Of a DNA stretch of 64,000 nucleotides, positions 2 through 22,863 are shown piece after piece (position 1 is the stretch's first letter; the number at the start of each line of letters is the position of its first letter). Made by a program: the position numbers and the translations under genes. This DNA comes from Niastella koreensis GR20-10 (GTDB lineage Bacteria > Bacteroidota > Bacteroidia > Chitinophagales > Chitinophagaceae): the NCBI RefSeq assembly GCF_000246855.1, contig NC_016609.1, positions 2,170,001 to 2,234,000 on the forward strand. The letters run 5' to 3'. The notes under the pieces are model-generated. The model was not told where the DNA came from and searched no databases. It saw only the letters and a list, made by a program, of their open reading frames with translations.

Positions 2-922
2 ATCCCACACTTTGCAAATTTGGTGATCGAATCAGGCATTACTACAACTGATCGTCCATGCAAAGCTGTGGGATGGGTAAAAGAAAAAGAACAACAGCCT
101 GGGCAGACAAAAAACTGCATTAAATCTTATTGGCCAGATTATTCATTCATCAATACAGCGTCAAAAACAGAGTACAATAACCTAAACGAATATTTCACAA
201 ACCCTGATGAAGAAATCGTAACAAAACAGGGAACGTCCTATTTTATGGACAGGATTTACTTGGTGTTAGTAAAGTTACTGCGAATGGGCGACATCAAACA
301 TCCCACAGGTGGTTACTATTCGAAAACCGCGCTGGAACGAAAAATTAAATTGAGCCCTACCATCAATGATCAACTTCGCTCTGGAATGATCTCCTGGATC
401 CGGGAAATCAGGTGTGGCCGCGACCCATCTGTTGACGTGCGGGAATTCATTACACAGCAATTTTTCCCTTTGTTTGGGATAACAGCCAACCGGGAGTTTG
501 ACAGTTTTTTAAACAATCAAAATCCATCAGCAAAAAACAATAACCTACAGCAAAATACCGGAAATATTATTAATCATAGTTACGATGGAGCAGTAGCCGC
601 ACACACTGGCAAAGAAATCCCGATACATGTCAATACAATCCACGCGGTAAAAGGCGAAACGCATACTGCTACACTTTACCTTGAGACCTACTATTTCGAT
701 GATGACATAAAAAGGATAATAGCGTATCTTAAGATTGGCCGGGGACCGGCCATATCCACAAAGCAGCAAAGAATTATAGAAACATTAAAAATGGCGTATG
801 TAGCTATGTCGCGCCCCACGCATTTTCTGAGCGTTGCTATAAGAAGTCATGGTATTACTGCAAATGATATTCAACAGCTTGAGACTGCTGGCTGGAGGGT
901 TGATACGGTTCTCAACGTTTAG
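2..922 (+). CDS. UvrD/Rep-like helicase, C-terminal part (5' end outside window)
   Basis: The frame is open to the left edge of the window, so this is the 3' part of a longer gene; the first internal ATG/GTG codons should not be taken as a start. The last third carries the two C-terminal superfamily-1A helicase signatures: motif V (HAVKGETHTATLYLET) and motif VI-like MAYVAMSRPTHFL, where the Arg would be the finger contacting ATP. This fixes the family as UvrD/Rep/PcrA-like DNA helicase, acting on DNA in the cytoplasm. The part seen before these motifs has no recognisable fold. Because it sits beside a Shedu gene in a defence island, it may be the helicase partner of an OLD-family nuclease (Gabija type) or another two-gene system, but the partner would be upstream and is not visible. 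Confidence 0.8.
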   Translation: MPHFANLVIESGITTTDRPCKAVGWVKEKEQQPGQTKNCIKSYWPDYSFINTASKTEYNNLNEYFTNPDEEIVTKQGTSYFMDRIYLVLVKLLRMGDIKHPTGGYYSKTALERKIKLSPTINDQLRSGMISWIREIRCGRDPSVDVREFITQQFFPLFGITANREFDSFLNNQNPSAKNNNLQQNTGNIINHSYDGAVAAHTGKEIPIHVNTIHAVKGETHTATLYLETYYFDDDIKRIIAYLKIGRGPAISTKQQRIIETLKMAYVAMSRPTHFLSVAIRSHGITANDIQQLETAGWRVDTVLNV

Positions 923-1114
923 TACAAGTGGAGAATGCTTATTTTCTTGATACGATATTTTTATGGTTAATAAGAAGCAGCTTAAAGGTTGTAAAAAGCA
1001 TTGCACAGCATTTCCAAATTTGAACGGACAACAGAATTACATCCGGCGCCAAGTAATACTTGGATCCATGTATCTTGTTTATATTAAATTTTTTTATAAA
1101 TAAAAATTGAAATT

Positions 1115-2548
1115 ATGGCACGTCCTTATCCATCCCGCACCGTGCAACCAAATGGGGAATTGGAATTTAATGAAATTAAGCCTGGTTTCTTTCGAGCATT
1201 CTTTACTCCTCCAATTGAGGCATTACCTTCCTACGTTTCCGATCCGAAAAACTATAAAAGACCCATATTTGACATAAATAACACAGAAAAGCGCTTAATT
1301 CTATATCCCTACCAAGTATGGGGCATGCAGCCAATGACTAACAAATACTACAATCTTGTCATCATTAGTGTAGACATGGAAAACCAGTATATTCCCAAGA
1401 CTGTGGATATTGACGATTTTTTGATAGGAGTATTACCTTCTGCATTTCTTGAAGATTATAACTATGGATTAGGATTCAGAAAAAGTTATAGGCACATAGC
1501 AACAATTTTGGAAAGTTTTGACATAAAAGAATTATGGATTACCAGGAAAGGGAAAACAGATATTGACATTGGGGCAAAAAAAGCGTTCATCAAGCGTTCG
1601 GATTTGGACGAACTATGTAGGGCTATTGACAATATTGGCCAGCGAGTACAAAAAGTAGCAGCCTCTTTAAAAAGAAATGTTGTAGACGACTTATTTGCAC
1701 GTTTATTAGCAGACGAAAAATCTGAATCTGCTTTAATATTAAATAGCGCGCAAATAGCTAGAAAGATTGGTATATCGACTCGACTAATGCCTGGAGGAGC
1801 TACCAAAAAAGAACAAATGGAAGCTATGGAAGTACTTAGAATGAATGGCAAGAAAATTGTTCAAGAGCAACCAAGTGAACTCATAAAACTTCGCAACGAT
1901 ATTGAGTTGGTTACTTTGGATGAGCTTATTGCGAGATTTGAAGTCATGCTTAATAAAACTTTATCAGAATCACATTGGCAAAGTCTATTTGATAAAAATC
2001 CTTTTATTCTTAATATGGCGTTTGGAATCCCTATAGTAAAAGTTCAAGGCCAAGCATTTGTAGGAGGACGTAAGATATCGGGATCGGGAGACAAAATAGC
2101 CGACTACCTGGTCAAAAATAGCATTAGCAATAACGCGGCAATTGTTGAAATAAAAACGCCTACAACGAAGCTCATGAGTACAAAAGAGTATAGGAGTGGT
2201 GTGTTTGCTCCGTCTATCGAAATTACAGGAGCAATCAACCAAATACTTGACCAAATATTTATGTTTCAAAAGGAGATAAATTCCCTTAAGGCAGCCAGTA
2301 GGGAATATGAGCTGGAATCTTATTCTGTTGTAGGAATTCTAATAGTGGGCAAATCTTTAACCTCTCCTGATGAACAGAAATCGTTCGAGCTTTTTAGAGG
2401 GAATTCGAAAAATATACACATTATCACTTTTGATGAATTGCTGACAAAATTAAAGGCATTACACAATTTCCTTACTTTAGATCGCTCACCCAAGGAAAAT
2501 ATGACTAACCAAAGCGATTTTATCGATCCAGAAGATCTGCCTTTTTAA
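1115..2548 (+). CDS. sduA: Shedu anti-phage nuclease SduA (DUF4263)
   Basis: This 477-residue protein has a C-terminal DUF4263 domain (about residues 270-450), the defining domain of the single-gene Shedu defence system, a DNA nuclease of the PD-(D/E)xK fold. Visible signatures are W288 followed by NPFIL (293-299), GGRK (317-320), D330 and the catalytic pair in VEIKTP (E345, K347). The N-terminal 260 residues are not a recognised domain; in Shedu proteins this part varies and is thought to sense the trigger. The ATG lies 8 bases after an A-rich leader and the gene is monocistronic, 192 bases after the helicase gene. The tail ends in an acidic stretch (DPEDLPF). Codon use is A/T-rich compared with the genes right of 23 kb, in line with transfer. 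Function follows from the family; nothing here shows what activates it. Confidence 0.85.
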   Translation: MARPYPSRTVQPNGELEFNEIKPGFFRAFFTPPIEALPSYVSDPKNYKRPIFDINNTEKRLILYPYQVWGMQPMTNKYYNLVIISVDMENQYIPKTVDIDDFLIGVLPSAFLEDYNYGLGFRKSYRHIATILESFDIKELWITRKGKTDIDIGAKKAFIKRSDLDELCRAIDNIGQRVQKVAASLKRNVVDDLFARLLADEKSESALILNSAQIARKIGISTRLMPGGATKKEQMEAMEVLRMNGKKIVQEQPSELIKLRNDIELVTLDELIARFEVMLNKTLSESHWQSLFDKNPFILNMAFGIPIVKVQGQAFVGGRKISGSGDKIADYLVKNSISNNAAIVEIKTPTTKLMSTKEYRSGVFAPSIEITGAINQILDQIFMFQKEINSLKAASREYELESYSVVGILIVGKSLTSPDEQKSFELFRGNSKNIHIITFDELLTKLKALHNFLTLDRSPKENMTNQSDFIDPEDLPF

Positions 2549-5449: not shown

Positions 5450-6844
5450 TTAACCCCAGTTACTTTCGTCTTCCAACCAGCGCAGCATAAATTCTACTAC
5501 ATCTACCTCCTGTTTTTTGCTATGACCATCTATAAAGTATATGTCACATTTTTCATCCATAAAAAGATCCTTCTCATATTTTAAAAGCCGGACGAAGCCA
5601 ATATAAAAGGGATTGTCCATCGATGTAGCATGGTCTAAGTTTATTTTGATTATTAAACCGAAATGTAACTCCCGGCCGCCCTGCGAAATTTTTATCGAAA
5701 TCATTTCCTCAGCCCATACCCCACGCGAAGCTTGCTTGGAGCTGATGGTCTGAAGTAAGCGAGTGACCGCATCGTCTTTGCGACGTTCCACCACGGCATT
5801 AACGCCAGAGCCCCTCAATCGGGCCAAAAAGGCATCAACCTTTTCGTTGATCTCCTGTACCTTCAAAGATACCAAGCCGGACATAGCTTCGACTTTTCTA
5901 CTTATCTCAACTTTTTCATTTAACTGATGTGCCAGTAATGTTGCCTCTTTTTCTTCTATACGCTGTGAAACAGCGATCACCTTTTTAAGGTCTGACTCAT
6001 CAATAGCAGGAGCCTTATAAAAGATTTTTTTCATCAGTGCTGACATTTCTCCTGCATGTTTCGGCGCTACCGATTCCTCCGAACAAGCGCCAGTGAATGC
6101 ATAAATCTTTGAAATAAGACCATCCAAATCTGCTGAGTAACGAACAAAACGAAAGTCATTGGGCCTGTCCCAATTCTTAGTCGGCTTATCAGCGATCATC
6201 CACATAAATAACTGTGATACCATGAAGACGTCAAGCCAGGGAGTTATTTCCTCCATTCTATACATCATCGGGTCAGGACTGTATCTTTTGTTACCTACAG
6301 CGTCATTAACGTCAGTAAGTCTTTCTTTCTCCGACCAGTAGGCCACGCCAAAATCGATTAGATGAGGCTTCCCATCAATGATTACAATATTATCCGGTTT
6401 GATATCGCGGTGAATGATAGGGTCCCTTCTGTTGTGTAAGGCAGTTAGCCCATCTAGGATATGGGCTGTAATTTCAAGGGCTTTTTCAAAGACTACAATA
6501 GCATTTTCTTGTTGCTCCTGCCGGAATTTTATCCAGTAGTCTTTAAAGGGCAATCCCAGCTTACTGATATACCAGGGGGTATCTCCAGGTACTGAATGTG
6601 CCAATATCGGTACAATCCCACTATTGGTCGTAGCCACTTCCTTAAGTACCTCGATCTCCCTATCAAAGCGTTTTAGATCCCTTGCTTCCGCGTTTTTAGG
6701 CATCTTAAATACACCGTAATCCTTCGTGGTGATGTTGTAAACCTTTATCGTAATTCCTTGGCCACCACCTTTATACACTTCTTTAACTTCCCATTCCGGG
6801 ATGTTCAGTCTTTTCAGTATTTCTTTTGCTTCATTAACTGTCAT
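5450..6844 (-). CDS. Hanks-type serine/threonine protein kinase with C-terminal extension
   Basis: Residues 20-290 are a eukaryotic-like kinase with every catalytic element present: glycine loop GGGQG (26-30), VAIK-type Lys47 in VFKMPK, Glu63 in REIEVL, catalytic loop IHRDIKPDN (144-152, D147, K149, N152) and Mg-binding DFG (164-166). It should therefore be active and cytoplasmic; there is no transmembrane helix or PASTA domain. Residues 290-360 are a predicted coiled coil and 375-464 an unrecognised alpha/beta domain likely to sense or bind a partner. The start ATG is the first of the frame. Stand-alone kinases with a C-terminal sensor occur in phage-defence islands (Stk2-like abortive infection); the context here fits such a role but does not prove it. 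Confidence 0.85.
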   Translation of the reverse strand: MTVNEAKEILKRLNIPEWEVKEVYKGGGQGITIKVYNITTKDYGVFKMPKNAEARDLKRFDREIEVLKEVATTNSGIVPILAHSVPGDTPWYISKLGLPFKDYWIKFRQEQQENAIVVFEKALEITAHILDGLTALHNRRDPIIHRDIKPDNIVIIDGKPHLIDFGVAYWSEKERLTDVNDAVGNKRYSPDPMMYRMEEITPWLDVFMVSQLFMWMIADKPTKNWDRPNDFRFVRYSADLDGLISKIYAFTGACSEESVAPKHAGEMSALMKKIFYKAPAIDESDLKKVIAVSQRIEEKEATLLAHQLNEKVEISRKVEAMSGLVSLKVQEINEKVDAFLARLRGSGVNAVVERRKDDAVTRLLQTISSKQASRGVWAEEMISIKISQGGRELHFGLIIKINLDHATSMDNPFYIGFVRLLKYEKDLFMDEKCDIYFIDGHSKKQEVDVVEFMLRWLEDESNWG

Positions 6845-9878: not shown

Positions 9879-12800
9879 ATGAACTGGCAATCGTTTAATA
9901 CATACGGAGACGCTCCTGAACATGCGTTTGAAACTTTTTGCAATCATCTTTTCCGTAACTACGTTTTGCGCAACTTTGGTATTGTTGTAAAGTTTCGTGT
10001 TGTTAATGGGAGTGGAGGGGATGGTGGCGTTGAAGCATATGCGGAACTGGGCAACCAGGACATAGTTGCGGTGCAGTCAAAGTGGTTCCGTGAAGATTTC
10101 GGTGCCTCCCAGATCGGGCAGATAAGGGATTCCATTGATACAGCCATGTCACTGCGCCCGGCAATAAAAAAGTACATCGTTTGTATTCCCCGTGATCTGA
10201 CATCGATCAAGTATACGAAAGGCAGCAAGGGCGGCCCTAAACAGGTGACAAAAAATTCAGAAGATCAGTTGCTTGAAAACCTGGAAAGGGAGATGAAGAT
10301 AAAATATCCCGGGCTGGAAATAGTCTGGTGGCTACAGGAAGCACTACTAGGTGAACTCATACATGAGGATAATGAAGGGTTGCATAAATTCTGGTTTGCC
10401 AAAGAAGTGATTAGTTTTAATTACCTGGTACAACAGTTTGAAAGGCAAAAAGCTGGTTGGCTCAATGAACGATATGTTCCTCAGCTTCACACCCAGGGCT
10501 TCATCCAGCAGGACATCGCAGGGCTGACTTACAGTGCTTACTACAGAAAGCATATCGACAGTATTGCCAGCTGGCATGTCATTATGCTACGCAGAGCCGT
10601 TACCGCTATTAACAAGTTTAATATACAAAATCCTTCATATACGGACTTCAATACCAGGCTTTCGGCTGTACGTACCCAGTTTATGGAGACTATAGACTGG
10701 TTGGTGGTACTTGGTGCCCGGCTTAAAGCGGGCGAACCTATCGGTGAAATACCAGATTTGCCATTTGGCGATATAGAGAAGATCATGGATGAGGTGGTTG
10801 ACTTTGGATATGATCACCAGGGTACCGTTAAAATGGGCTATCTCATCAATGCTATACAACAGATCTACACGGGTCATTTAACCGCGTATATCGACCAGCT
10901 GAAAGCCGCCGTACAGAACGTGGGTCTATTGTTTTTATGTGGTCCCGGTACAGGCAAGACCCATGGCCTTGCATTCGCAGTGGAGCAACATCTTGTTCAG
11001 CAGTCACCCGCTATAATTATCCCGGCTTTGGGGACGCCATGCAGCAGCTGGGCAGAAATCGTAAGCTCCGGATTGGAGCTAAATGATTGGAATATTGATG
11101 AAATTCTCAATGCGCTGGAGGCGTTGGCGATCAGAAATGACCGCCACTTGGCCAGGACCACGCTTCAGCCTAATGAGGAGCTGCATCATGAACCCACACA
11201 GGTATTGATTGCCGTCGATGGTCTGGAAGAGGATAACATGAACCGGCAAAAATGGATTACCCGGATGAGAGAAAGTATGCAGCTTGGTAAAAAATTCAGC
11301 CGTGTGAAATTTATTTTCAGTGCGCGCCCCCATTTTTACAGGGAACATGATTTACCTGCAAGCTTACCATTATGGGTGCATGAACTGCCGGCAGCAGGAG
11401 ATGTACCGGTTCAAAAATTAGCCTTGCAGTATTTCAAACCTGAAAATTATAATATCGCCATTACATCTCCATCCCTCATCCGGGGTATAGACAGTCAGTT
11501 TGCCCTTAGGTTGTTTTGCGATATCTATAAAGGAACAGCCATTACCGAATCAGATCAGATCGTTACAGCCGGGACTAAACTGCTGGGTAAAAAGATGGAG
11601 CGAATGAACGTTGAATTTCAGTCGAAGATCAACAAACAATTATCGGACGCCCGAAATACCATGGGTATTGCCATCAACTTACTTGCAGATCAGTTTTTGC
11701 AACAGGTGGAATGTGAGCATACCATGCTGGTGGGTGTGCTGCGGCCGGCACTCACCTATCTGAATGACGCCGAGATCGAACTGCTGCTGGATTATTTGTC
11801 CCACAACGGTATTTTGACAAAAAAAATAACTGACATCGATCATGGCGGAGTGCCGATTGCCCGAACGGACTACTTTATTACCTACCGCTCCATTATTGAG
11901 ATTGTAGTGGCCAATCGCACAATAAAAACGATCACCGAAGAGGACCTAGTGCAAATACCATCGCTTTTTTTTGAAAGGCTGCAACAAAATGAAGACACCC
12001 GGGAGGGCCTATCTGATGAACGTATTGTCCAGATCATTGCCAATACCATGTTTCATGAACATGGAAAACTGATCGGTGAAAATGGCTTCCTGACACATGG
12101 TTTTAGTGAAGCAGTTATCCAGAGAACGCAAAGAGAGGCATTACGAAAAGCACCAGCTGCGCTGGCTTTGAAGTATAAGGAACAAATCGATAAAGAGTTC
12201 TGGGGTAGCCATGATCAACGGTATACATTATTATCAGAACAGATCCTGCCTGGCAGTGAATCTGTTGAGAATAATTTCGGGGCGCTTTATTTACATAACA
12301 TACTGATGAGTTTTGCCAGTGCTTATGAGCGGGATAAGATCTGGATCGGCCATGACTATTATAAATATCCCCAGGATATTACCTATAAATACGGCCTTGT
12401 CGAGGTGCTGACCGCATATTCAGAAGATTTATACCTGTCTGAATATGCCCTGCACAATGAAACTCCGTTAATATTTGCATGGTGTTTATCCACCCTGGAC
12501 CGACGGACCCGTACCAAATTACAAATGTCTTTAACCACCTGGGCCACCATACAAACACATGAGTTTATATTGCTGCTGGATTTGATATTTGACTGCAAAG
12601 ATCCGCAGATACAGGAGGATTTGGCATCCATTACACTAGCCCTGGCAGGGCGCTTAAAGGATGAAGGCGTTATCCTTAAGCTTGCTCAATGGGCATTACT
12701 CCATGTATTCAATGCACCACTGGTCAATAGAAACGTCATTGTGCGTATGGGATTCCGGGCTATTGTGGAAAGAGCTTACCAATATAAACTCCTTAGCGAA

Positions 12801-14750
12801 GACGAAGTTAAATTGTGCAGGCCCCAACAACAATCAACGATCACCCTGTTGCCGTTGGATGGTGTCGCATTAAATACAGTCAAAGAAGAGGTTTACCCCA
12901 TCACACATGATTTGGCATGGTATGTTGTTACCCAGGCTACAGACGGATTCTTACAATATCCCGCGATCAATGGCGAAACGTTCCAAAGTATGGACAGCCC
13001 GGAGGCCCAACGTCTTCTGCATTTATACGAGCAACAATACGGACAGCCATTCTTTGCCAGCACATGGCGAATGGCGGCGGCCATCGCATACATTCGGGGG
13101 CTGGGTTTTGACGCTGTTAATGGCAGTGGAATTACTGATGAAAGCCATGGTCTCCAAAGTAAAATATATACCTATGAAGAGAAATATACCTGGCTGGCGG
13201 TACATTATCTGAAAGGGTATTTGGCCGATTACGTTCCCTATAAAGAAGATGATCAATTCGATTTTATTGAAGATTATAGCCGGATAGTTCACGTGCCTAA
13301 TCCCGGTGAAGAACTTGAAACAGATATAGATCAGCCAGTAATTTTGGAAGAATGGGTACAGGAAGAATCCCTGTTTGGTGGATCAAATGGTGAACCCGCA
13401 CAACTTATTGAAACGGCGGTCAACAACGAACCGTTGATCGATTTTAATAAATGGCTCCATTTTAGTGAAGACCAGTTTTATTTGTCTTCAACAAACGAAC
13501 CACTCACGGCATTATATAACTATACAAGTACAGAAGACAGTAGTGGCTTTGTTTATGGTAGAATGATACTGACTGCCTGTCTTATTCCCAAAGGTACCCT
13601 GGGGAGTTTAATTACTGCAGTGCAGGATATAGATTATGATCCCCATTTTGTAATCCATCTGGATACACTGAGCGCATCACCTGATACTGACGTCTACAGC
13701 AATCCTTCAGATCTTGTATGGATGAACTGGATCGGAGAAAATTATACGGCAACCTCCTTTTGGGATGATGATAAGGAAGTAGACCTGACATACGCATTAA
13801 CGGATGTGACCAGAAAGACCGTCAATGGGGAGGAACAGCTGAAGATCCCTGGTCGTACATTAAGGAATATGGCTGGGATGGTTGAAATGAATGGGGCTTT
13901 TCTGTTAGATACACAGGGAGACATCGTAGCATTCCTGCATAAGTTCAGTAGATGGAGCCGCGAAAATCAGCAAATTGTGCTGGTCAATAAACAAACACTA
14001 TTGACTGCATTGGAAAACAACAATCTGGAACTTGTGTGGTTTGCAGAAGTGTTTAAAGAGAAGCAGGTGTCAGTCCCGGAAACCAAAAACGTACCGCATG
14101 TCAGGAAATGCCGTAAGTATCTTGTGTACCTGGAAAATAAAGCGCTAAAAAGTGTCAAGTTTTGGGATGAACAATTCTCCAATGCGAGGGACATTAACTC
14201 CGATGAGAGAATGGCCTCACTGGCGCCGGAAGTAAAACAATATGCTCAGCTGACAGCTGATGAAATTCAACAGCTTGAAACATTGATTATAAAAGGAGGG
14301 GAGGTCAATGCCAAAACCCTGCCCGCCAGGCTGAAAACTACGCAGGCAATCGCTGTCTTTAAAGATGGAGATACCATTATTGCTACTGCCTCCATCAAAA
14401 AACAACCGAGGCGTTATGTCAATCAGGTGTTTGCTGCCGCTGGGGTGGCAGAACAGGCTGACACGTTTGAACTGGAACTGGGCTATGTCGTTACCAGCCC
14501 AAGATACCGCGGACGGAACCTGTCCAGGCGGCTTTGCCGGGAGCTAATGGGTTTGGTTGGTAAAGGGCCTGTTTACGCAACTATCCGTATGACGAATTTG
14601 GCAATGTATACGGTTATAGCTGAACTGGGCTTCGATATAAGCGGTGACAGTTATTCTAATAAGGCAGGAACAGATCAGTTAGGGCTGTACATCTATACGC
14701 CATCACCGGCTGAAGCTCCCGTTTTGCCAGCGGATAAAGGTAAACCATAG
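9879..14750 (+). CDS. Mrr-like nuclease / STAND ATPase / GNAT fusion protein
   Basis: One uninterrupted 1623-residue frame. N-terminus: an Mrr/REase-like PD-(D/E)xK nuclease, with GGDGGVEAY (D48, E52) and VQSKWF (Q66, K68), expected to cut DNA. Centre: a P-loop ATPase with Walker A GPGTGKTH (355-362), Walker B VLIAVDGLEED (442-452) and a sensor-1-like FIFSARPHF, typical of STAND NTPases that oligomerise on ligand binding. Residues about 600-1450 are a long helical region then a beta-rich stretch of unknown fold, the likely sensor. C-terminus: a GNAT-like acetyltransferase domain with GYVVTSPRYRGRNLSRRL (motif A region, RGRN at 1544-1547) and IAELGFDISG. Nuclease plus STAND plus large sensor is the Avs4-like (AVAST) layout; a GNAT tail is not part of the architectures I know. 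Start chosen because the nuclease fold begins immediately after it. Convergent with the KAP gene. Confidence 0.8.
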   Translation: MNWQSFNTYGDAPEHAFETFCNHLFRNYVLRNFGIVVKFRVVNGSGGDGGVEAYAELGNQDIVAVQSKWFREDFGASQIGQIRDSIDTAMSLRPAIKKYIVCIPRDLTSIKYTKGSKGGPKQVTKNSEDQLLENLEREMKIKYPGLEIVWWLQEALLGELIHEDNEGLHKFWFAKEVISFNYLVQQFERQKAGWLNERYVPQLHTQGFIQQDIAGLTYSAYYRKHIDSIASWHVIMLRRAVTAINKFNIQNPSYTDFNTRLSAVRTQFMETIDWLVVLGARLKAGEPIGEIPDLPFGDIEKIMDEVVDFGYDHQGTVKMGYLINAIQQIYTGHLTAYIDQLKAAVQNVGLLFLCGPGTGKTHGLAFAVEQHLVQQSPAIIIPALGTPCSSWAEIVSSGLELNDWNIDEILNALEALAIRNDRHLARTTLQPNEELHHEPTQVLIAVDGLEEDNMNRQKWITRMRESMQLGKKFSRVKFIFSARPHFYREHDLPASLPLWVHELPAAGDVPVQKLALQYFKPENYNIAITSPSLIRGIDSQFALRLFCDIYKGTAITESDQIVTAGTKLLGKKMERMNVEFQSKINKQLSDARNTMGIAINLLADQFLQQVECEHTMLVGVLRPALTYLNDAEIELLLDYLSHNGILTKKITDIDHGGVPIARTDYFITYRSIIEIVVANRTIKTITEEDLVQIPSLFFERLQQNEDTREGLSDERIVQIIANTMFHEHGKLIGENGFLTHGFSEAVIQRTQREALRKAPAALALKYKEQIDKEFWGSHDQRYTLLSEQILPGSESVENNFGALYLHNILMSFASAYERDKIWIGHDYYKYPQDITYKYGLVEVLTAYSEDLYLSEYALHNETPLIFAWCLSTLDRRTRTKLQMSLTTWATIQTHEFILLLDLIFDCKDPQIQEDLASITLALAGRLKDEGVILKLAQWALLHVFNAPLVNRNVIVRMGFRAIVERAYQYKLLSEDEVKLCRPQQQSTITLLPLDGVALNTVKEEVYPITHDLAWYVVTQATDGFLQYPAINGETFQSMDSPEAQRLLHLYEQQYGQPFFASTWRMAAAIAYIRGLGFDAVNGSGITDESHGLQSKIYTYEEKYTWLAVHYLKGYLADYVPYKEDDQFDFIEDYSRIVHVPNPGEELETDIDQPVILEEWVQEESLFGGSNGEPAQLIETAVNNEPLIDFNKWLHFSEDQFYLSSTNEPLTALYNYTSTEDSSGFVYGRMILTACLIPKGTLGSLITAVQDIDYDPHFVIHLDTLSASPDTDVYSNPSDLVWMNWIGENYTATSFWDDDKEVDLTYALTDVTRKTVNGEEQLKIPGRTLRNMAGMVEMNGAFLLDTQGDIVAFLHKFSRWSRENQQIVLVNKQTLLTALENNNLELVWFAEVFKEKQVSVPETKNVPHVRKCRKYLVYLENKALKSVKFWDEQFSNARDINSDERMASLAPEVKQYAQLTADEIQQLETLIIKGGEVNAKTLPARLKTTQAIAVFKDGDTIIATASIKKQPRRYVNQVFAAAGVAEQADTFELELGYVVTSPRYRGRNLSRRLCRELMGLVGKGPVYATIRMTNLAMYTVIAELGFDISGDSYSNKAGTDQLGLYIYTPSPAEAPVLPADKGKP

Positions 14751-14843: not shown

Positions 14844-17513
14844 TTAATATGCGATAACTATTTCCAATACTTCCAGCAAAAACAGGTAATCAGTCAATTC
14901 AGGCACAAAACTTTTTCCTTTAAACGTTTCTTTCAGAGCAGCTGGTTGCTTGTGTACCTTTCTTGCTTCAATAAGAATTTTATCTGGATTATGATCATCG
15001 TGGTACTGACGAATAAGTTGGAAAAGGGTTTCCAAACCATTCCCTTGCCAGGGATTAACAATATTTAGCCGGGCATATTTATCTACCAGCAGGTTTTTAC
15101 AGAGCAGGTACCGGTAATAAAAAATACTAATCCTCCTGGGCGTGGCGCCCTCCCAGTTTGATATAGTTTTTGTTAAGAGTTCAATTTCACGCGGTGTAAG
15201 TTTCTCTGTTTTATTATCAGGCTTTGCCGGTATGGCTGTTGCCCCATTTTTTTCTGCATCAGCACGTGTGTAAATATTTTGTTCATTTGTAGATTGGCTT
15301 ATCACAATCGCTTCCGTTTGATCATTAGCAACCTGTTGAATAGTATCCGTTATAACCGTTGTAGCAACAATATCATTTTTAAACAATACTTTCAAATATT
15401 CTTCCTTTTGTTGATTATTCAGGTCACCCAATTTGATAGCAGAAATAAATAATTTGTCTAGGTATTCGGAAATTAGTTCATCGACGTTTGTGCTGTTACT
15501 TATTTCGCCTTCCAGCAATGCATGGTATTTTTTCCTAATTGCATTTCTTAAAATTCTTTCATCAATTGCAGTAATAATAATTAGGCGTTTAACCACTTCA
15601 TCGTTTTCCAGCATTACACGTAATGCATCGATATGCGGAATTATTTTATCTTCAGCGCAGCGGTCAAGATCTTCTACCACCAGCAAGACTTGATCAGGCG
15701 GTTTCCCATACAGCCATATGAATAAACCGGAATACCATTTTACTTCCTTTGTTGCAGGTATCCATACTTTAAGCAATTTCACCAACTCTTCGTGAATATC
15801 TGCTTGAATACCCAGAGATGCTTTAAAACTGCTTCGATCTGTATATTTTTTAATTAACTCAATAGCCTTGGTTGAATAATTCTTAGTGATCTGGTGATAA
15901 ATGCCACTGATAACCGCGAAAAAGACTGATGTAGCACCCACCCAAAAAGTCACCTTTTCTTTAATGCTATGGGAAATTAACACCAAAATTGAAGCAGTCG
16001 CAATAATAGTAATCAGCATTTTCCAAACCGGTGTCCAACCCACTCGCTTGCGATTTAAAACGAAGAGTCTTGCATAATAGCGTAGGAAATTTTTCTTATC
16101 ACCAAGATAAGCATCACAAAGCCGTTCATAAAGGTAAGCCCAAGAAGCGGGCGTATCCTGATACTTCCATGCTTGATATTCCACTTTTTCAAACAATATA
16201 GTATGTCTTGCCTTTAGCTCTTTCCATAATTGCTTTATAAAATAAGTTTTTCCTCGACCCCATTTACCAAATACTCCAATCATTTGTCCATTATCCCCCT
16301 GCATGCCATATATAATGGCTGCCATGTCTGCTGCCAACTCCTTTACTCCCAATACAGGTTCTATATCTGATAGTCTTTGCCTGTAAAATTGTGTTTTAAA
16401 AAAATATTCATCCCCAAGCGCAGACTGATCGGTATTATCACTCTCCATTTCATTAGTAATGCCCAATCTTTCCAGGTATTGATTCAGATACTCTTGTAAA
16501 CTTCTGTACTTTCTATATTGATGAAGTGCCTGTTCACTAGAAAATTTTATATGAACCGTTCCGTCAGCTTGTGTTCCGCCACCGTCACTAAAACCCACGA
16601 AATAGCTCATTAGCTTGAAAATCATTTTGATTTCCTGAAGCGTGATACCTGGAATTATTTTTTGTAGATCGGAAGAGCGCACAACATCAATAATTGCATT
16701 CGTTTGCATTAAAAATTTGATAGAAAGTATTACCTCATCAAATTTTAAAAAAATATCCCAACCCGGATTTATATGCCAAATCCCCCAAAGTGTAATAAGG
16801 CGATCACTTTGAATGAGTGGCTGATAATCCTTTTCATTAAATTCACCAGGAAATATTTCAGCAAACCCAGGTATCTTAACGACACTGTCATATTCTCGCC
16901 CTTGTGCGAAATTTTCATACAATAAGTTAAGAAATCGTATATCCTTATTAGATAAATTTCGTTTTGGAAAACGGTAAACCGTTGTGGTTTCAATCTCTAT
17001 TTGTACATCGATGTTAAACTCATGATAATCTGCCCAAGCAAAGATTTTAAAAAAATTATACCCTGTTATGCTAAAGTTGTTTTCGTAGGTATTATCACCT
17101 GATGTTAGTTTATACCTTAGTGTCTCATTGGAAGGGTCATATTGTATCCAAATATCAATTATGCTACCTCGTTCATATTCCTGGAATGTTACTCTTGGAC
17201 CCTTGTGTTCCGAGAAATAATATGTGTCAATTTCAAGCTTATTGGATGATCGGGCCTTCTTTTCCTTCAAATCCCCCTGATGCACCTCTATAAATTTCAA
17301 ATTTGCATTATTATAACGCCCATTTTGGGGTGCGAAGTCAATTTCTTCAGTTTTTGATAATGCAATACCAAAACGAAGAAATACCGGCAATCCAGTTGGC
17401 TGTAAAGTAAACCTGTATTTTTTGTCTTTTAATTGGAACGGGACACCAGGAAAGACATGGTCATTATATTCTCCAAGTCCCTGGTTCGTAAATGTGTAGT
17501 TAAGGCGGATCAT
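14844..17513 (-). CDS. KAP-family P-loop NTPase with membrane insert
   Basis: The 889-residue protein has an unrecognised N-terminal region (1-360; beta-rich to about 180, helical afterwards) followed by a KAP NTPase domain. Walker A is GKWGRGKTYF (416-425) and Walker B VLLVVEDLDRC (609-619), the EDLDRC form being diagnostic. As in other KAP NTPases two transmembrane helices (about 497-516 and 521-540) are inserted in the P-loop domain, so it is membrane-anchored with cytoplasmic ATPase. KAP proteins are found in plasmids and defence islands, with suggested roles in membrane-linked phage exclusion. The gene converges with the giant fusion gene (93 bases between stops) and is separated from the upstream XRE gene by a terminator, so it has its own promoter in 17514-17600. 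Confidence 0.85.
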   Translation of the reverse strand: MIRLNYTFTNQGLGEYNDHVFPGVPFQLKDKKYRFTLQPTGLPVFLRFGIALSKTEEIDFAPQNGRYNNANLKFIEVHQGDLKEKKARSSNKLEIDTYYFSEHKGPRVTFQEYERGSIIDIWIQYDPSNETLRYKLTSGDNTYENNFSITGYNFFKIFAWADYHEFNIDVQIEIETTTVYRFPKRNLSNKDIRFLNLLYENFAQGREYDSVVKIPGFAEIFPGEFNEKDYQPLIQSDRLITLWGIWHINPGWDIFLKFDEVILSIKFLMQTNAIIDVVRSSDLQKIIPGITLQEIKMIFKLMSYFVGFSDGGGTQADGTVHIKFSSEQALHQYRKYRSLQEYLNQYLERLGITNEMESDNTDQSALGDEYFFKTQFYRQRLSDIEPVLGVKELAADMAAIIYGMQGDNGQMIGVFGKWGRGKTYFIKQLWKELKARHTILFEKVEYQAWKYQDTPASWAYLYERLCDAYLGDKKNFLRYYARLFVLNRKRVGWTPVWKMLITIIATASILVLISHSIKEKVTFWVGATSVFFAVISGIYHQITKNYSTKAIELIKKYTDRSSFKASLGIQADIHEELVKLLKVWIPATKEVKWYSGLFIWLYGKPPDQVLLVVEDLDRCAEDKIIPHIDALRVMLENDEVVKRLIIITAIDERILRNAIRKKYHALLEGEISNSTNVDELISEYLDKLFISAIKLGDLNNQQKEEYLKVLFKNDIVATTVITDTIQQVANDQTEAIVISQSTNEQNIYTRADAEKNGATAIPAKPDNKTEKLTPREIELLTKTISNWEGATPRRISIFYYRYLLCKNLLVDKYARLNIVNPWQGNGLETLFQLIRQYHDDHNPDKILIEARKVHKQPAALKETFKGKSFVPELTDYLFLLEVLEIVIAY

Positions 17514-20914: not shown

Positions 20915-21187
20915 ATGAAAACCAAAATCAATTCCCTGAAAAACCAGGCGGATGGTGTAGCATCTGCCCAGGCCATTAATCCTAAAAAAGAACCATTAAC
21001 CGTTGAAAAGCTACGCACCTTTCCTGGCTGTGAACATTACAATGATGAAGAAGCAGAACAAGTAGTGCAGACTATTCACCAGTATGCTCTTATTCTGTTT
21101 GAATGCGTTTCAAAAGCCAAAGTGGTCACTTTACCAGACACTAACAACATATCATACTTAAATCCTATTAAAAAGAAAGCATCATGA
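20915..21187 (+). CDS. Small protein translationally coupled to the recombinase
   Basis: A 90-residue protein of unknown family. Its TGA overlaps the ATG of the recombinase (ATGA), so the two are translationally coupled. The middle (EKLRTFPGCEHYNDEEAEQV) and a following helix (HQYALILFECVSKAK) look like a small helical domain. By position it may be a recombination directionality factor or accessory protein; this is inference. Confidence 0.65.
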   Translation: MKTKINSLKNQADGVASAQAINPKKEPLTVEKLRTFPGCEHYNDEEAEQVVQTIHQYALILFECVSKAKVVTLPDTNNISYLNPIKKKAS

Positions 21188-22836
21188 GCCAGCACCTTGA
21201 TTTGTTTCAGCAATGGTCAAAAAGACCAGTTGTACACTATAAGAAAACAGCAACCGGCAAGTTTTGCGCAGTATATACCCGGGTATCCTCCAAAGAGCAA
21301 TATGAAACCAACCTGAGCCTGGACACACAGAAACGAGCCATTGAGGAGTTTGCAGCCCGCAACGAGTTTGCCATCATGGGTTACTTTGGTGGTACCTATG
21401 AAAGCGCCAGCACGGATGGCCGAAAGGAGTTTCAGCGAATGCTAGAGTTCATTAAAAAGAACAAGGAGAAAGTAACCCATATTCTAGTGTACCTGCTCGA
21501 CAGGTTCAGTCGGACCGGCGATGGTGCTATGCGGCTGTCAAAAGAACTCCGCGAGAAATATGGCGTTACCATCATTGCGGTTACGCAACCTATTGATACC
21601 AGTAACCCCGGCGGAGTATTCCAGCAAAACATGCAATTCTTGTTTAGCGAGTATGACAACCAGTTACGCCGACAGCGAGCCATTGCCGGCACCAAAGAAA
21701 AACTGGAACGGGGCATTTGGTGTTTACAACCTCCGATGGGTTACTCTATTGTAAAACAAGATAAAAACCGAAAAATCGTTGTCAATGAGGTAGGCAAAAA
21801 ACTGCGCAAGGCATTTGAGTGGAAAGCTCAGGGAATGAAAAACGATGAAATCCTATCCCGGTTACAGGCAATGGGTGTTAAGATCTATAAGCAGAAGCTG
21901 AGTATGATCCTTTCTAATCCATTTTATTGTGGAATCATTGCCCATAAAACCCTGAATGGAAAACTGGTGGTTGGTGACCACGAGAAACTTATATCCCAAG
22001 AACTATTCCTGCGTATTCACGATATCCGGGCAGCAGCAGGAGGTAAGTATGGTGTATCGCATAAAAAGGAGAATTCAGCATACCCGTTAAAACTTTTCAT
22101 GAAATGTGGCAATTGTGGAATTGGCTACACCGGCTATGCTGTTACCAAAACAATTAAAGCCACCCAAGAAATAGGTCGGTATCATTACTACAAATGTCGT
22201 ACTGAAGGCTGTAATTGTAATAAGAGCACAAGAGTGGTTAATAACCACTTTCTCGATTACCTGGCTGGTTATAGCATTAAATCGCATTTGGTAACGCCGC
22301 TGTTATACCACATGAACTATGCTTTTGACCGGCATTATGAAGCTTCCTTTAAGTTGAGGGACAACCTGCAAAGCAACTTGGCTATCGTGGATGCAAAGAT
22401 TGAGGAACTGGAAGAAAACTATTACGTTGACAAAAAGGTGCCCGCTGAAACCTATGACAGACTAATGATAAAGCTCGCCAAAGAGAAAAAGCAGATCCTG
22501 GACAACCTGGCCGGTAGCAATATTGAGAGTTCTAACTTAAAAGATACCTTCGAGTGGGCCATCAATATTTCGCTGGAACTCCCGCTGCTATGGGATTCTG
22601 GCAGAGTAGGGGTAAAAGAAAATTTACAAAAACTAGTATTCCCCAAAGGAATAAGCTACTACCACAAAAATGGGGCATTTCTAACTGACGAAGTAAACGA
22701 AGTATTTGAGCCGATCCCGCGCCTGAACTGCATTTCAGAAAGTGATAAAAACAAACAAGGCAGCATTTCTGCTGCCTTGTCCAATTTGGTCGGGCAGACA
22801 AGATTCGAACTTGCGACCCCTACGTCCCGAACGTAG
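21184..22836 (+). CDS. Large serine recombinase (integrase)
   Basis: The N-terminal resolvase domain (about 25-175) has the catalytic YTRVSS motif (Ser35) and the arginine-bearing LDRFSR; then comes the Recombinase domain (about 185-300), a zinc ribbon ([14 protein letters not shown]... [10 protein letters not shown]) and a coiled coil (385-430). This is a site-specific integrase of the phiC31/TnpX class. The last about 28 residues are unusual: codons 525-533 run through the hairpin terminator of tRNA-Pro, and the final residues ([14 protein letters not shown]) are the antisense reading of the tRNA itself. The stop lies inside the tRNA. The element thus appears inserted at this tRNA, and the tail of the protein is supplied by the attachment site. 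Confidence 0.9.
22755..22780 (-). terminator. tRNA-Pro terminator, inside the recombinase frame
   Basis: Perfect 10-base stem ACAAGGCAGC / GCTGCCTTGT with a 6-base loop, followed on the minus strand by TTTGTTTTT. It begins 10 bases after the 3' end of tRNA-Pro and coincides with the last part of the recombinase coding frame. Confidence 0.85.
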
Positions 22837-22863
22837 TGCGCTACCGGGCTGCGCTACTGCCCG
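22790..22863 (-). tRNA. tRNA-Pro (anticodon CGG)
   Basis: Complete 74-base cloverleaf on the minus strand: acceptor CGGGCAG paired with CTGCCCG plus discriminator A, anticodon stem CTACG/CGTAG with loop TTCGGGA, and T loop GTTCGAATC. CCA is not encoded. It has its own promoter (22884-22916) and terminator (22755-22780). It marks the right boundary of the island and is the probable attachment site of the recombinase element. Confidence 0.95.

What the first reader, a model, noticed from the sequence alone, without database searches (positions are those of the whole stretch)
9879..14750. Mrr-like nuclease, STAND ATPase and GNAT acetyltransferase domains in one 1623-residue protein
The frame is continuous and contains three recognisable enzymatic or switch parts: Mrr-type nuclease (D48, E52, Q66, K68), Walker A/B (355-362, 442-452), and a C-terminal GNAT-like domain with RYRGRNLSRRL at 1542-1552. 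Nuclease plus STAND plus large sensor is established for Avs4-like systems; a GNAT tail is not a layout I know, so it may acetylate a phage or host target, or sense CoA, making this a candidate new immune protein.
Basis: partly seen in the sequence, partly recalled or inferred. Interest (0 to 1): 0.8.

Follow-up and report, generated by a model that had tools for sequence, protein, structure and literature searches.

The report
Avs2-like immune sensor with acetyltransferase tail
A bacterial protein that probably kills phage-infected cells by cutting DNA carries an extra acetyltransferase-fold domain at its end, and close relatives of that domain turn up attached to, or beside, several unrelated bacterial defence genes, hinting at a shared accessory whose job is unknown.

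Summary
Window 9879-14750 (+) is one 1623-aa frame: Mrr-type nuclease, STAND NTPase, long sensor, GNAT tail. It is Avs2-like (PADLOC Avs2 E 3.9e-59) rather than Avs4-like (that match covers residues 2-185 only). The modelled tail (pLDDT 85) has the GNAT fold (542 PDB matches at E<=1e-3). Eleven other aligned Avs2 proteins have at most 36 residues past residue 1440, so the tail is an add-on; it is not an artefact, since another genus has the same protein, 61% identical, tail included. The tail belongs to a distinct GNAT clade (20 members against 24 ordinary GNATs). Of 27 members, seven are fused to other domains (Avs2, HNH, Schlafen-AlbA, unidentified), five lie by recognised defence genes (CBASS-Cap4, Gabija, PDC-M36A, an Avs2 cluster, a RelA/SpoT gene), seven by other genes, and eight have no partner that I recognised. 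The Avs2 part presumably works as Avs2 does. For the tail I slightly prefer a restraining role over a second effector, with low confidence. GNATs fused to another defence protein, DndF, are in print; an Avs fusion was not found. New variant of a known kind.

The parts
9879..14750 (+). Avs2-like protein with C-terminal GNAT domain, 1623 aa
   Evidence: single open frame; PADLOC Avs2 PDLC02164 E 3.9e-59, best stretch residues 1-999; 61% identical homologue in G758 over residues 1-1610
9879..10403 (+). Mrr-type PD-(D/E)XK nuclease domain, about residues 1-175 (bounds approximate)
   Evidence: D48, E52, Q66, K68; NCBIfam Avs4 residues 2-185 E 6.8e-8
10869..11558 (+). STAND NTPase domain, about residues 331-560 (bounds approximate); Walker A 355-361, Walker B about 442-452
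   Evidence: motifs aligned with 12 other Avs2 proteins, G758 included; NCBIfam Avs2 residues 319-988 E 5.5e-17
12219..14183 (+). Avs2-type sensor region, about residues 781-1435 (bounds approximate)
   Evidence: PDB 9o4e (Avs2) matches residues 787-983; Anabaena homologue aligns to residue 1426
14229..14699 (+). GNAT domain, about residues 1451-1607
   Evidence: Pfam PF00583 residues 1491-1585; AlphaFold2 and Foldseek; clade membership
14502..14534 (+). acetyl-CoA loop motif RYRGRNLSRRL, residues 1542-1552
   Evidence: varies across the family

Best explanation
The protein is an Avs2-like immune sensor. By analogy with Avs2 (established for the family, inferred here), the long C-terminal half binds a conserved phage protein such as the large terminase, the STAND NTPase switches the protein on, and the N-terminal Mrr-type nuclease cuts cellular and phage DNA. 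The GNAT tail is a portable accessory from a distinct GNAT clade that recurs with unrelated defence effectors. I think it most likely restrains or protects: it acetylates the immune protein itself (for example a lysine of the nuclease or NTPase) and so sets the firing threshold. Shown here: domains, fold, fusion in two genera, clade, recurrent partners. Inferred: ligand, switching, nuclease activity, acetyltransferase activity and its target.
For: Avs2 identity. GNAT fold. The fusion is kept in two genera at 52-69% identity in the regions measured (GNAT 56%); dS could not be estimated (the program returned -1), which I take as saturation, so that the tail looks constrained. Clade. K1507, E1533 and G1535 are identical in 20 of 20 members, and E1533 falls on a strand that in other GNATs often holds the general base (recalled). 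Partners: HNH_5 and SLFN_AlbA_2 fusions, PDC-M36A, a CBASS operon whose Cap4-type endonuclease ends 4 bp before the GNAT, and Gabija, an Avs2 cluster, a RelA/SpoT gene. For restraint rather than toxicity: 8 of 27 members have no sensor or antitoxin that I recognised beside them.
Against: No activity is shown. The acetyl-CoA loop varies (window RGRN, G758 RGHR) and the usual tyrosine of helix 4 (position recalled) is not there, so the domain may only bind CoA. The RelA/SpoT partner is not a nuclease. The GNAT was found at 2 of 14 Avs2 regions scanned, so the Avs2 core does not need one. Specialists who met a GNAT fused to DndF proposed a suicidal effector acting on proteins, not a brake (PMC10853773, passages). 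Copies without a recognised partner may have unidentified neighbours or distant partners, or be silent.
Confidence: 0.33

Rival explanations
1. The GNAT is a second effector: once the sensor is activated, or when the nuclease is blocked, it acetylates a host or phage molecule (tRNA, a protein, the bound terminase).
For: For GNAT domains fused to DndF, authors propose suicidal action on self proteins when the main system is countered (PMC10853773, passages). GNAT toxins that acetylate charged tRNA are known (cited in PMC11742911, passages). Phage GNATs acetylate RNA polymerase (PMC7824862, passages).
Against: 8 of 27 clade members have no recognised sensor or antitoxin beside them; several partners already carry a toxic domain.
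Confidence: 0.28
2. The tail is a CoA or acetyl-CoA sensor, or a binding scaffold without catalysis, that tunes activation to metabolic state or adds a ligand contact.
For: Varied acetyl-CoA loop and no helix-4 tyrosine (positions partly recalled).
Against: K1507, E1533 and G1535 identical in 20 of 20, and A1567 and T1568 in 19 of 20, suggest a kept active site.
Confidence: 0.18
3. The clade is a mobile-element passenger that lands beside defence genes because both travel together; the fusion is of little consequence.
For: Many members lie on plasmids, one on a viral contig, the window's in an island with a recombinase; 8 of 27 have no recognised partner, and of 13 partners scanned with PADLOC eight gave no match.
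Against: Seven of 27 members are fused in frame to other domains, with three recognised kinds; the Avs2 fusion is kept in two genera; 62 proteins of 30 ordinary GNAT loci gave no PADLOC match stronger than 4.7e-26.
Confidence: 0.14
4. The GNAT modifies DNA, as Mom does, and protects self or element DNA from the linked nuclease.
For: Mom-family GNATs occur with endonucleases in jumbo phages (PMC7824862, passages); several partners here are nucleases.
Against: Hard to fit with a GNAT fused to a rare, large sensor that kills the cell, or with a RelA/SpoT partner; kinship with Mom not tested.
Confidence: 0.07

Closest known systems
Avs2 (AVAST type 2), PADLOC PDLC02164, NCBIfam NF041813, PDB 9o4e
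   Same: N-terminal Mrr-type nuclease, STAND NTPase, sensor; matches over residues 1-999 and 787-983
   Different: a GNAT domain after the sensor; 61 bits against NCBI's equivalog cut-off of 1000; 11 other Avs2 aligned lack the tail
Avs4 (NF041815)
   Same: nuclease domain, residues 2-185, E 6.8e-8
   Different: no match beyond the nuclease; the sensor is Avs2-like
DndF with N-terminal GNAT (PMC10853773, passages read)
   Same: a GNAT fused to a large defence protein
   Different: different core, GNAT at the N-terminus, filed by the authors under DUF4338; Pfam gave no such match for the window protein; direct kinship not tested
GNAT N-acyltransferases such as 1xeb, ElaA (5z6n), RimI type (5isv)
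   Same: fold
   Different: 10-19% identity in the first ten matches; two short helices between strands 3 and 4 in the model; partners
GNAT of BREX-related capture systems (PMC12839542, passages read)
   Same: a GNAT gene in a defence cluster that also has a STAND NTPase
   Different: goes with HerA/FtsK and TGT and is proposed to modify host DNA; sequence kinship not tested

Membership tests
Avs2 | N-terminal Mrr/PD-(D/E)XK nuclease with active-site residues | tested here: met
   D48, E52, Q66, K68 aligned with other Avs2
Avs2 | STAND NTPase with Walker A and B | tested here: met
Avs2 | Avs2-type sensor | tested here: met
   PADLOC to residue 999; 9o4e residues 787-983; Anabaena homologue to 1426
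Avs2 | NCBIfam equivalog score (1000 bits) | tested here: not met
   61 bits; hence 'Avs2-like', a divergent member or sister branch
Avs2 | activation by phage large terminase | not testable with these tools
   needs co-expression
GNAT superfamily | GNAT fold | tested here: met
GNAT superfamily | canonical Q/RxxGxG/A acetyl-CoA motif (recalled) | tested here: inconclusive
   RYRGRN: last position not G/A, varied in the clade
GNAT superfamily | acetyltransferase activity | not testable with these tools
   needs an assay
Avs4 | Avs4 match over NTPase and sensor | tested here: not met
   only residues 2-185 match

The most novel reading that the evidence does not exclude
One small GNAT clade is a portable enzyme module shared by unrelated bacterial immune systems (Avs2, CBASS-Cap4, Gabija, PDC-M36, HNH and Schlafen fusions, a RelA/SpoT toxin-like gene). 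It would act as a built-in acetylation safety catch on the killing effector, and its copies without a partner, on plasmids and a viral contig, would be counter-defence proteins that silence such effectors.
Probability: 0.18. Interest if true: 0.88.

Novelty: new variant of a known kind. Interest (0 to 1): 0.57.

Why it matters
An acetyltransferase-fold domain fused to a complete Avs2-like protein is an architecture that my searches did not find described. The same GNAT clade beside CBASS, Gabija and other effectors suggests a control or effector layer common to systems thought to be separate. It gives a direct experiment: remove or inactivate the tail and ask whether killing becomes leaky, weaker or unchanged.

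Tried and rejected
Avs4 membership: rejected, the match is confined to the nuclease. Chance frame or assembly error: rejected by the G758 homologue. GNAT as a standard Avs2 part: rejected; 11 of 11 other aligned Avs2 lack it, and a GNAT-family HMM hit 2 of 14 Avs2 regions, G758 and G1113. Left out of the alignment: G226, G469, G261 and the weaker hits; left out: G705, G261 and the weaker hits. GNAT as a PADLOC-known part: no match up to E 5 for eight GNAT domains and one neighbour. Phage records: no match; viral contigs: none with the tail alone, one with a three-row alignment. Second copy of the tRNA-Pro end beside the island: not found; the own-genome search gave the query itself and five distant places. 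By eye only: PD-(D/E)XK looks of genes in L045, L038, L123 and of the 831-aa gene in L120, the ApeA look of L042 and the membrane look of L037; searches of these gave no supporting match where made. The PADLOC threshold for comparing clade and control was looked at afterwards and the two sides were not scanned alike; I claim no P value.

Full report
Observation. The frame at 9879-14750 (+) encodes 1623 aa. PADLOC gives Avs2 (PDLC02164, E 3.9e-59, best stretch residues 1-999). NCBIfam gives Avs2 far below its cut-off (61 of 1000 bits, residues 319-988) and Avs4 for the nuclease alone. Pfam, asked up to E 1, gives GNAT alone, just over its cut-off (20.8 against 20.7 bits). The one PDB sequence match is the solved Avs2, 9o4e (2.5e-6, residues 787-983).

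The tail. AlphaFold2 of residues 1420-1623, aligned with six family members, gave pLDDT 85.0 and pTM 0.78. Foldseek found 542 PDB matches at E<=1e-3, led by 1xeb, SbzI and ElaA, and 109 viral models at E<=1e-3. The model has two short helices between strands 3 and 4 (about 1511-1520 and 1524-1529). Across 20 family members K1507, E1533 and G1535 never vary; A1567, T1568, F1585 and G1589 are the same in 19. The acetyl-CoA loop varies: RGRN here, RGHR in G758.

The tail is an add-on, and the fusion recurs. One of them, G705, lacks the Mrr motif. Among 396 genomes of the order, 11 including the own one had some match; one besides the own was full length: G758, another genus of the same family, 61% over residues 1-1610 in an open frame. 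Identity is 64% in the nuclease, 66% in the NTPase, 60-69% in three stretches of the sensor, 52% in the linker before the NTPase and 56% in the GNAT; dN is 0.29 overall and 0.34 in the GNAT, while dS could not be estimated (returned as -1), which I take as saturation. Among 148 relatives one other genome had a match, to the GNAT alone. The Avs2 HMM hit 21 of 395 genomes of the phylum at E<=1e-3, several of them weak or partial.

A distinct GNAT clade. Twenty tail relatives fall on one side of a branch (SH-aLRT 96) against 24 ordinary GNATs of the own genome, 24 of the 30 with loci; it is a quick tree with long branches, and the program warns of that. With family alignments the clade was found in 2 of 345, 6 of 395 and 5 of 304 genomes, in overlapping samples with the own genome in each, so it is rare here. 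Among plasmids it was in 16 records, and in 19 with another query, of 72,556.

Partners of 27 members (the rows of the tree; near-identical copies counted once, except that L044 with L098 and L035 with L049 are close pairs; deep forks there are weak). Fused, seven: Avs2 in the window and G758; HNH_5 in L002 (1.4e-11) and SLFN_AlbA_2 in L034 (4.7e-10); unidentified parts in L042, L037 and L119. Near recognised defence genes, five: PDC-M36A in the own genome (L003, 6.1e-227); a CBASS operon with cyclase, HORMA, TRIP13 and Cap4-type endonuclease in L061, the last ending 4 bp before the GNAT; Gabija GajA and GajB in L048 (1.3e-265 and 8.8e-209); a same-strand cluster in L120 of an 831-aa gene, the GNAT, an HExxH gene and a 1410-aa Avs2 (34% to another Avs2; 9o4e at 4e-40), where the GNAT's true partner could be the 831-aa gene; and a RelA/SpoT gene in L125 (7ztb and 9erv at 3.6e-16; that 7ztb is the defence protein CapRel is recalled). 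Near genes of other known families, two: a PLD protein in L039 and a DUF3800 protein in L036. Near genes that I could not identify, five: L045, L047, L038, L123, L124. No partner recognised, eight: L035, L049, L044, L098, L096, L099, L121, L122. These eight are not all alone: L121, L096 and L099 have small unassigned genes close by, L122 lies between a peptidase-like and a helicase-like gene (by eye), L049 lies back to back with a methylase-like gene (by eye), L098 is convergent with a TrlF-family gene, and L099 has an annotated restriction endonuclease two genes on.

Control. Of the 32 GNATs that Pfam's model found in the own genome, the 30 with loci and their same-strand open frames within 150 bp (62 proteins in all) gave eight PADLOC families with one member each at E<=1e-5, best 4.7e-26. 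Of 13 clade partners or fusions scanned with PADLOC, four reached 3.9e-59 or better (Avs2, M36A, Cap4, GajB), one was weak (L039, 1.5e-8) and eight gave nothing (L042, L002, L034, L037, L036, L045, L047, L038); the partners of the other 14 members were not scanned with it, and two of these (L060, L120) are Avs2 by alignment. So the link to defence is recurrent but not universal, and the control is small and from one genome.

Mechanism. Nuclease Avs proteins cleave phage and host DNA after recognising terminase or portal (introduction of PMC12931631, passages); the same is inferred here. For the GNAT, copies without a recognised sensor or antitoxin fit a harmless or protective activity somewhat better than a free toxin, hence my preference for restraint. 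Against it, authors who saw GNAT domains fused to DndF proposed a suicidal back-up effector that acts on proteins (PMC10853773, passages), and the RelA/SpoT case shows that a model tied to nucleases is too narrow.

Literature. Searches that joined Avs2, AVAST, CBASS, Cap4, Gabija or STAND NTPase with acetyltransferase or GNAT listed nothing on an Avs fusion; of the 130 papers and the 189 I saw the 20 listed, many of them off topic. I saw passages of seven papers: PMC12839542, PMC12931631, PMC11742911, PMC10853773, PMC7824862, PMC12409363 (a reference only) and PMC10907252 (no GNAT). A 2022 Avs paper that I asked for by a recalled DOI is not held, so prior mention there cannot be excluded.

Setting. 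The gene lies in a defence island: GajB C-terminal part (20-922), Shedu SduA (1115-2548, 7.7e-147), a PD-T4-6-like kinase (5450-6844) and a KAP NTPase (14844-17513), with a large serine recombinase (21184-22836) whose end overlaps tRNA-Pro (22787-22863, minus).

Noticed in passing
window 21184-22863: Large serine recombinase whose 3' end overlaps tRNA-Pro (22787-22863, minus), a likely island edge; no second copy of the tRNA end found beside the island.
   Followed up: partly
window 20-2548: C-terminal part of a GajB-like gene and a Shedu SduA gene (7.7e-147): the window opens inside a defence island.
   Followed up: partly
window 14844-17513: 889-aa KAP P-loop NTPase, convergent with the Avs2-GNAT gene, weakly like QatA and PifA; no Pfam match for its first 390 residues.
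   Followed up: no
window 5450-6844: Kinase-domain protein like PD-T4-6 (1.2e-22).
   Followed up: no
L120 830-9236: Same-strand cluster of an 831-aa gene, a GNAT, an HExxH protein and a separate Avs2; BLAST at 1e-5 found neither the 831-aa nor the HExxH gene in the 13 other Avs2 regions scanned.
   Followed up: partly
L061 4516-9987: CBASS operon with HORMA, TRIP13 and Cap4-type effector, followed by the GNAT and a further nucleotidyltransferase-like gene (the last by eye).
   Followed up: partly
L003 1444-1875: The own genome's second GNAT of the clade, 143 aa, looks short at its C-terminus beside its relatives.
   Followed up: no
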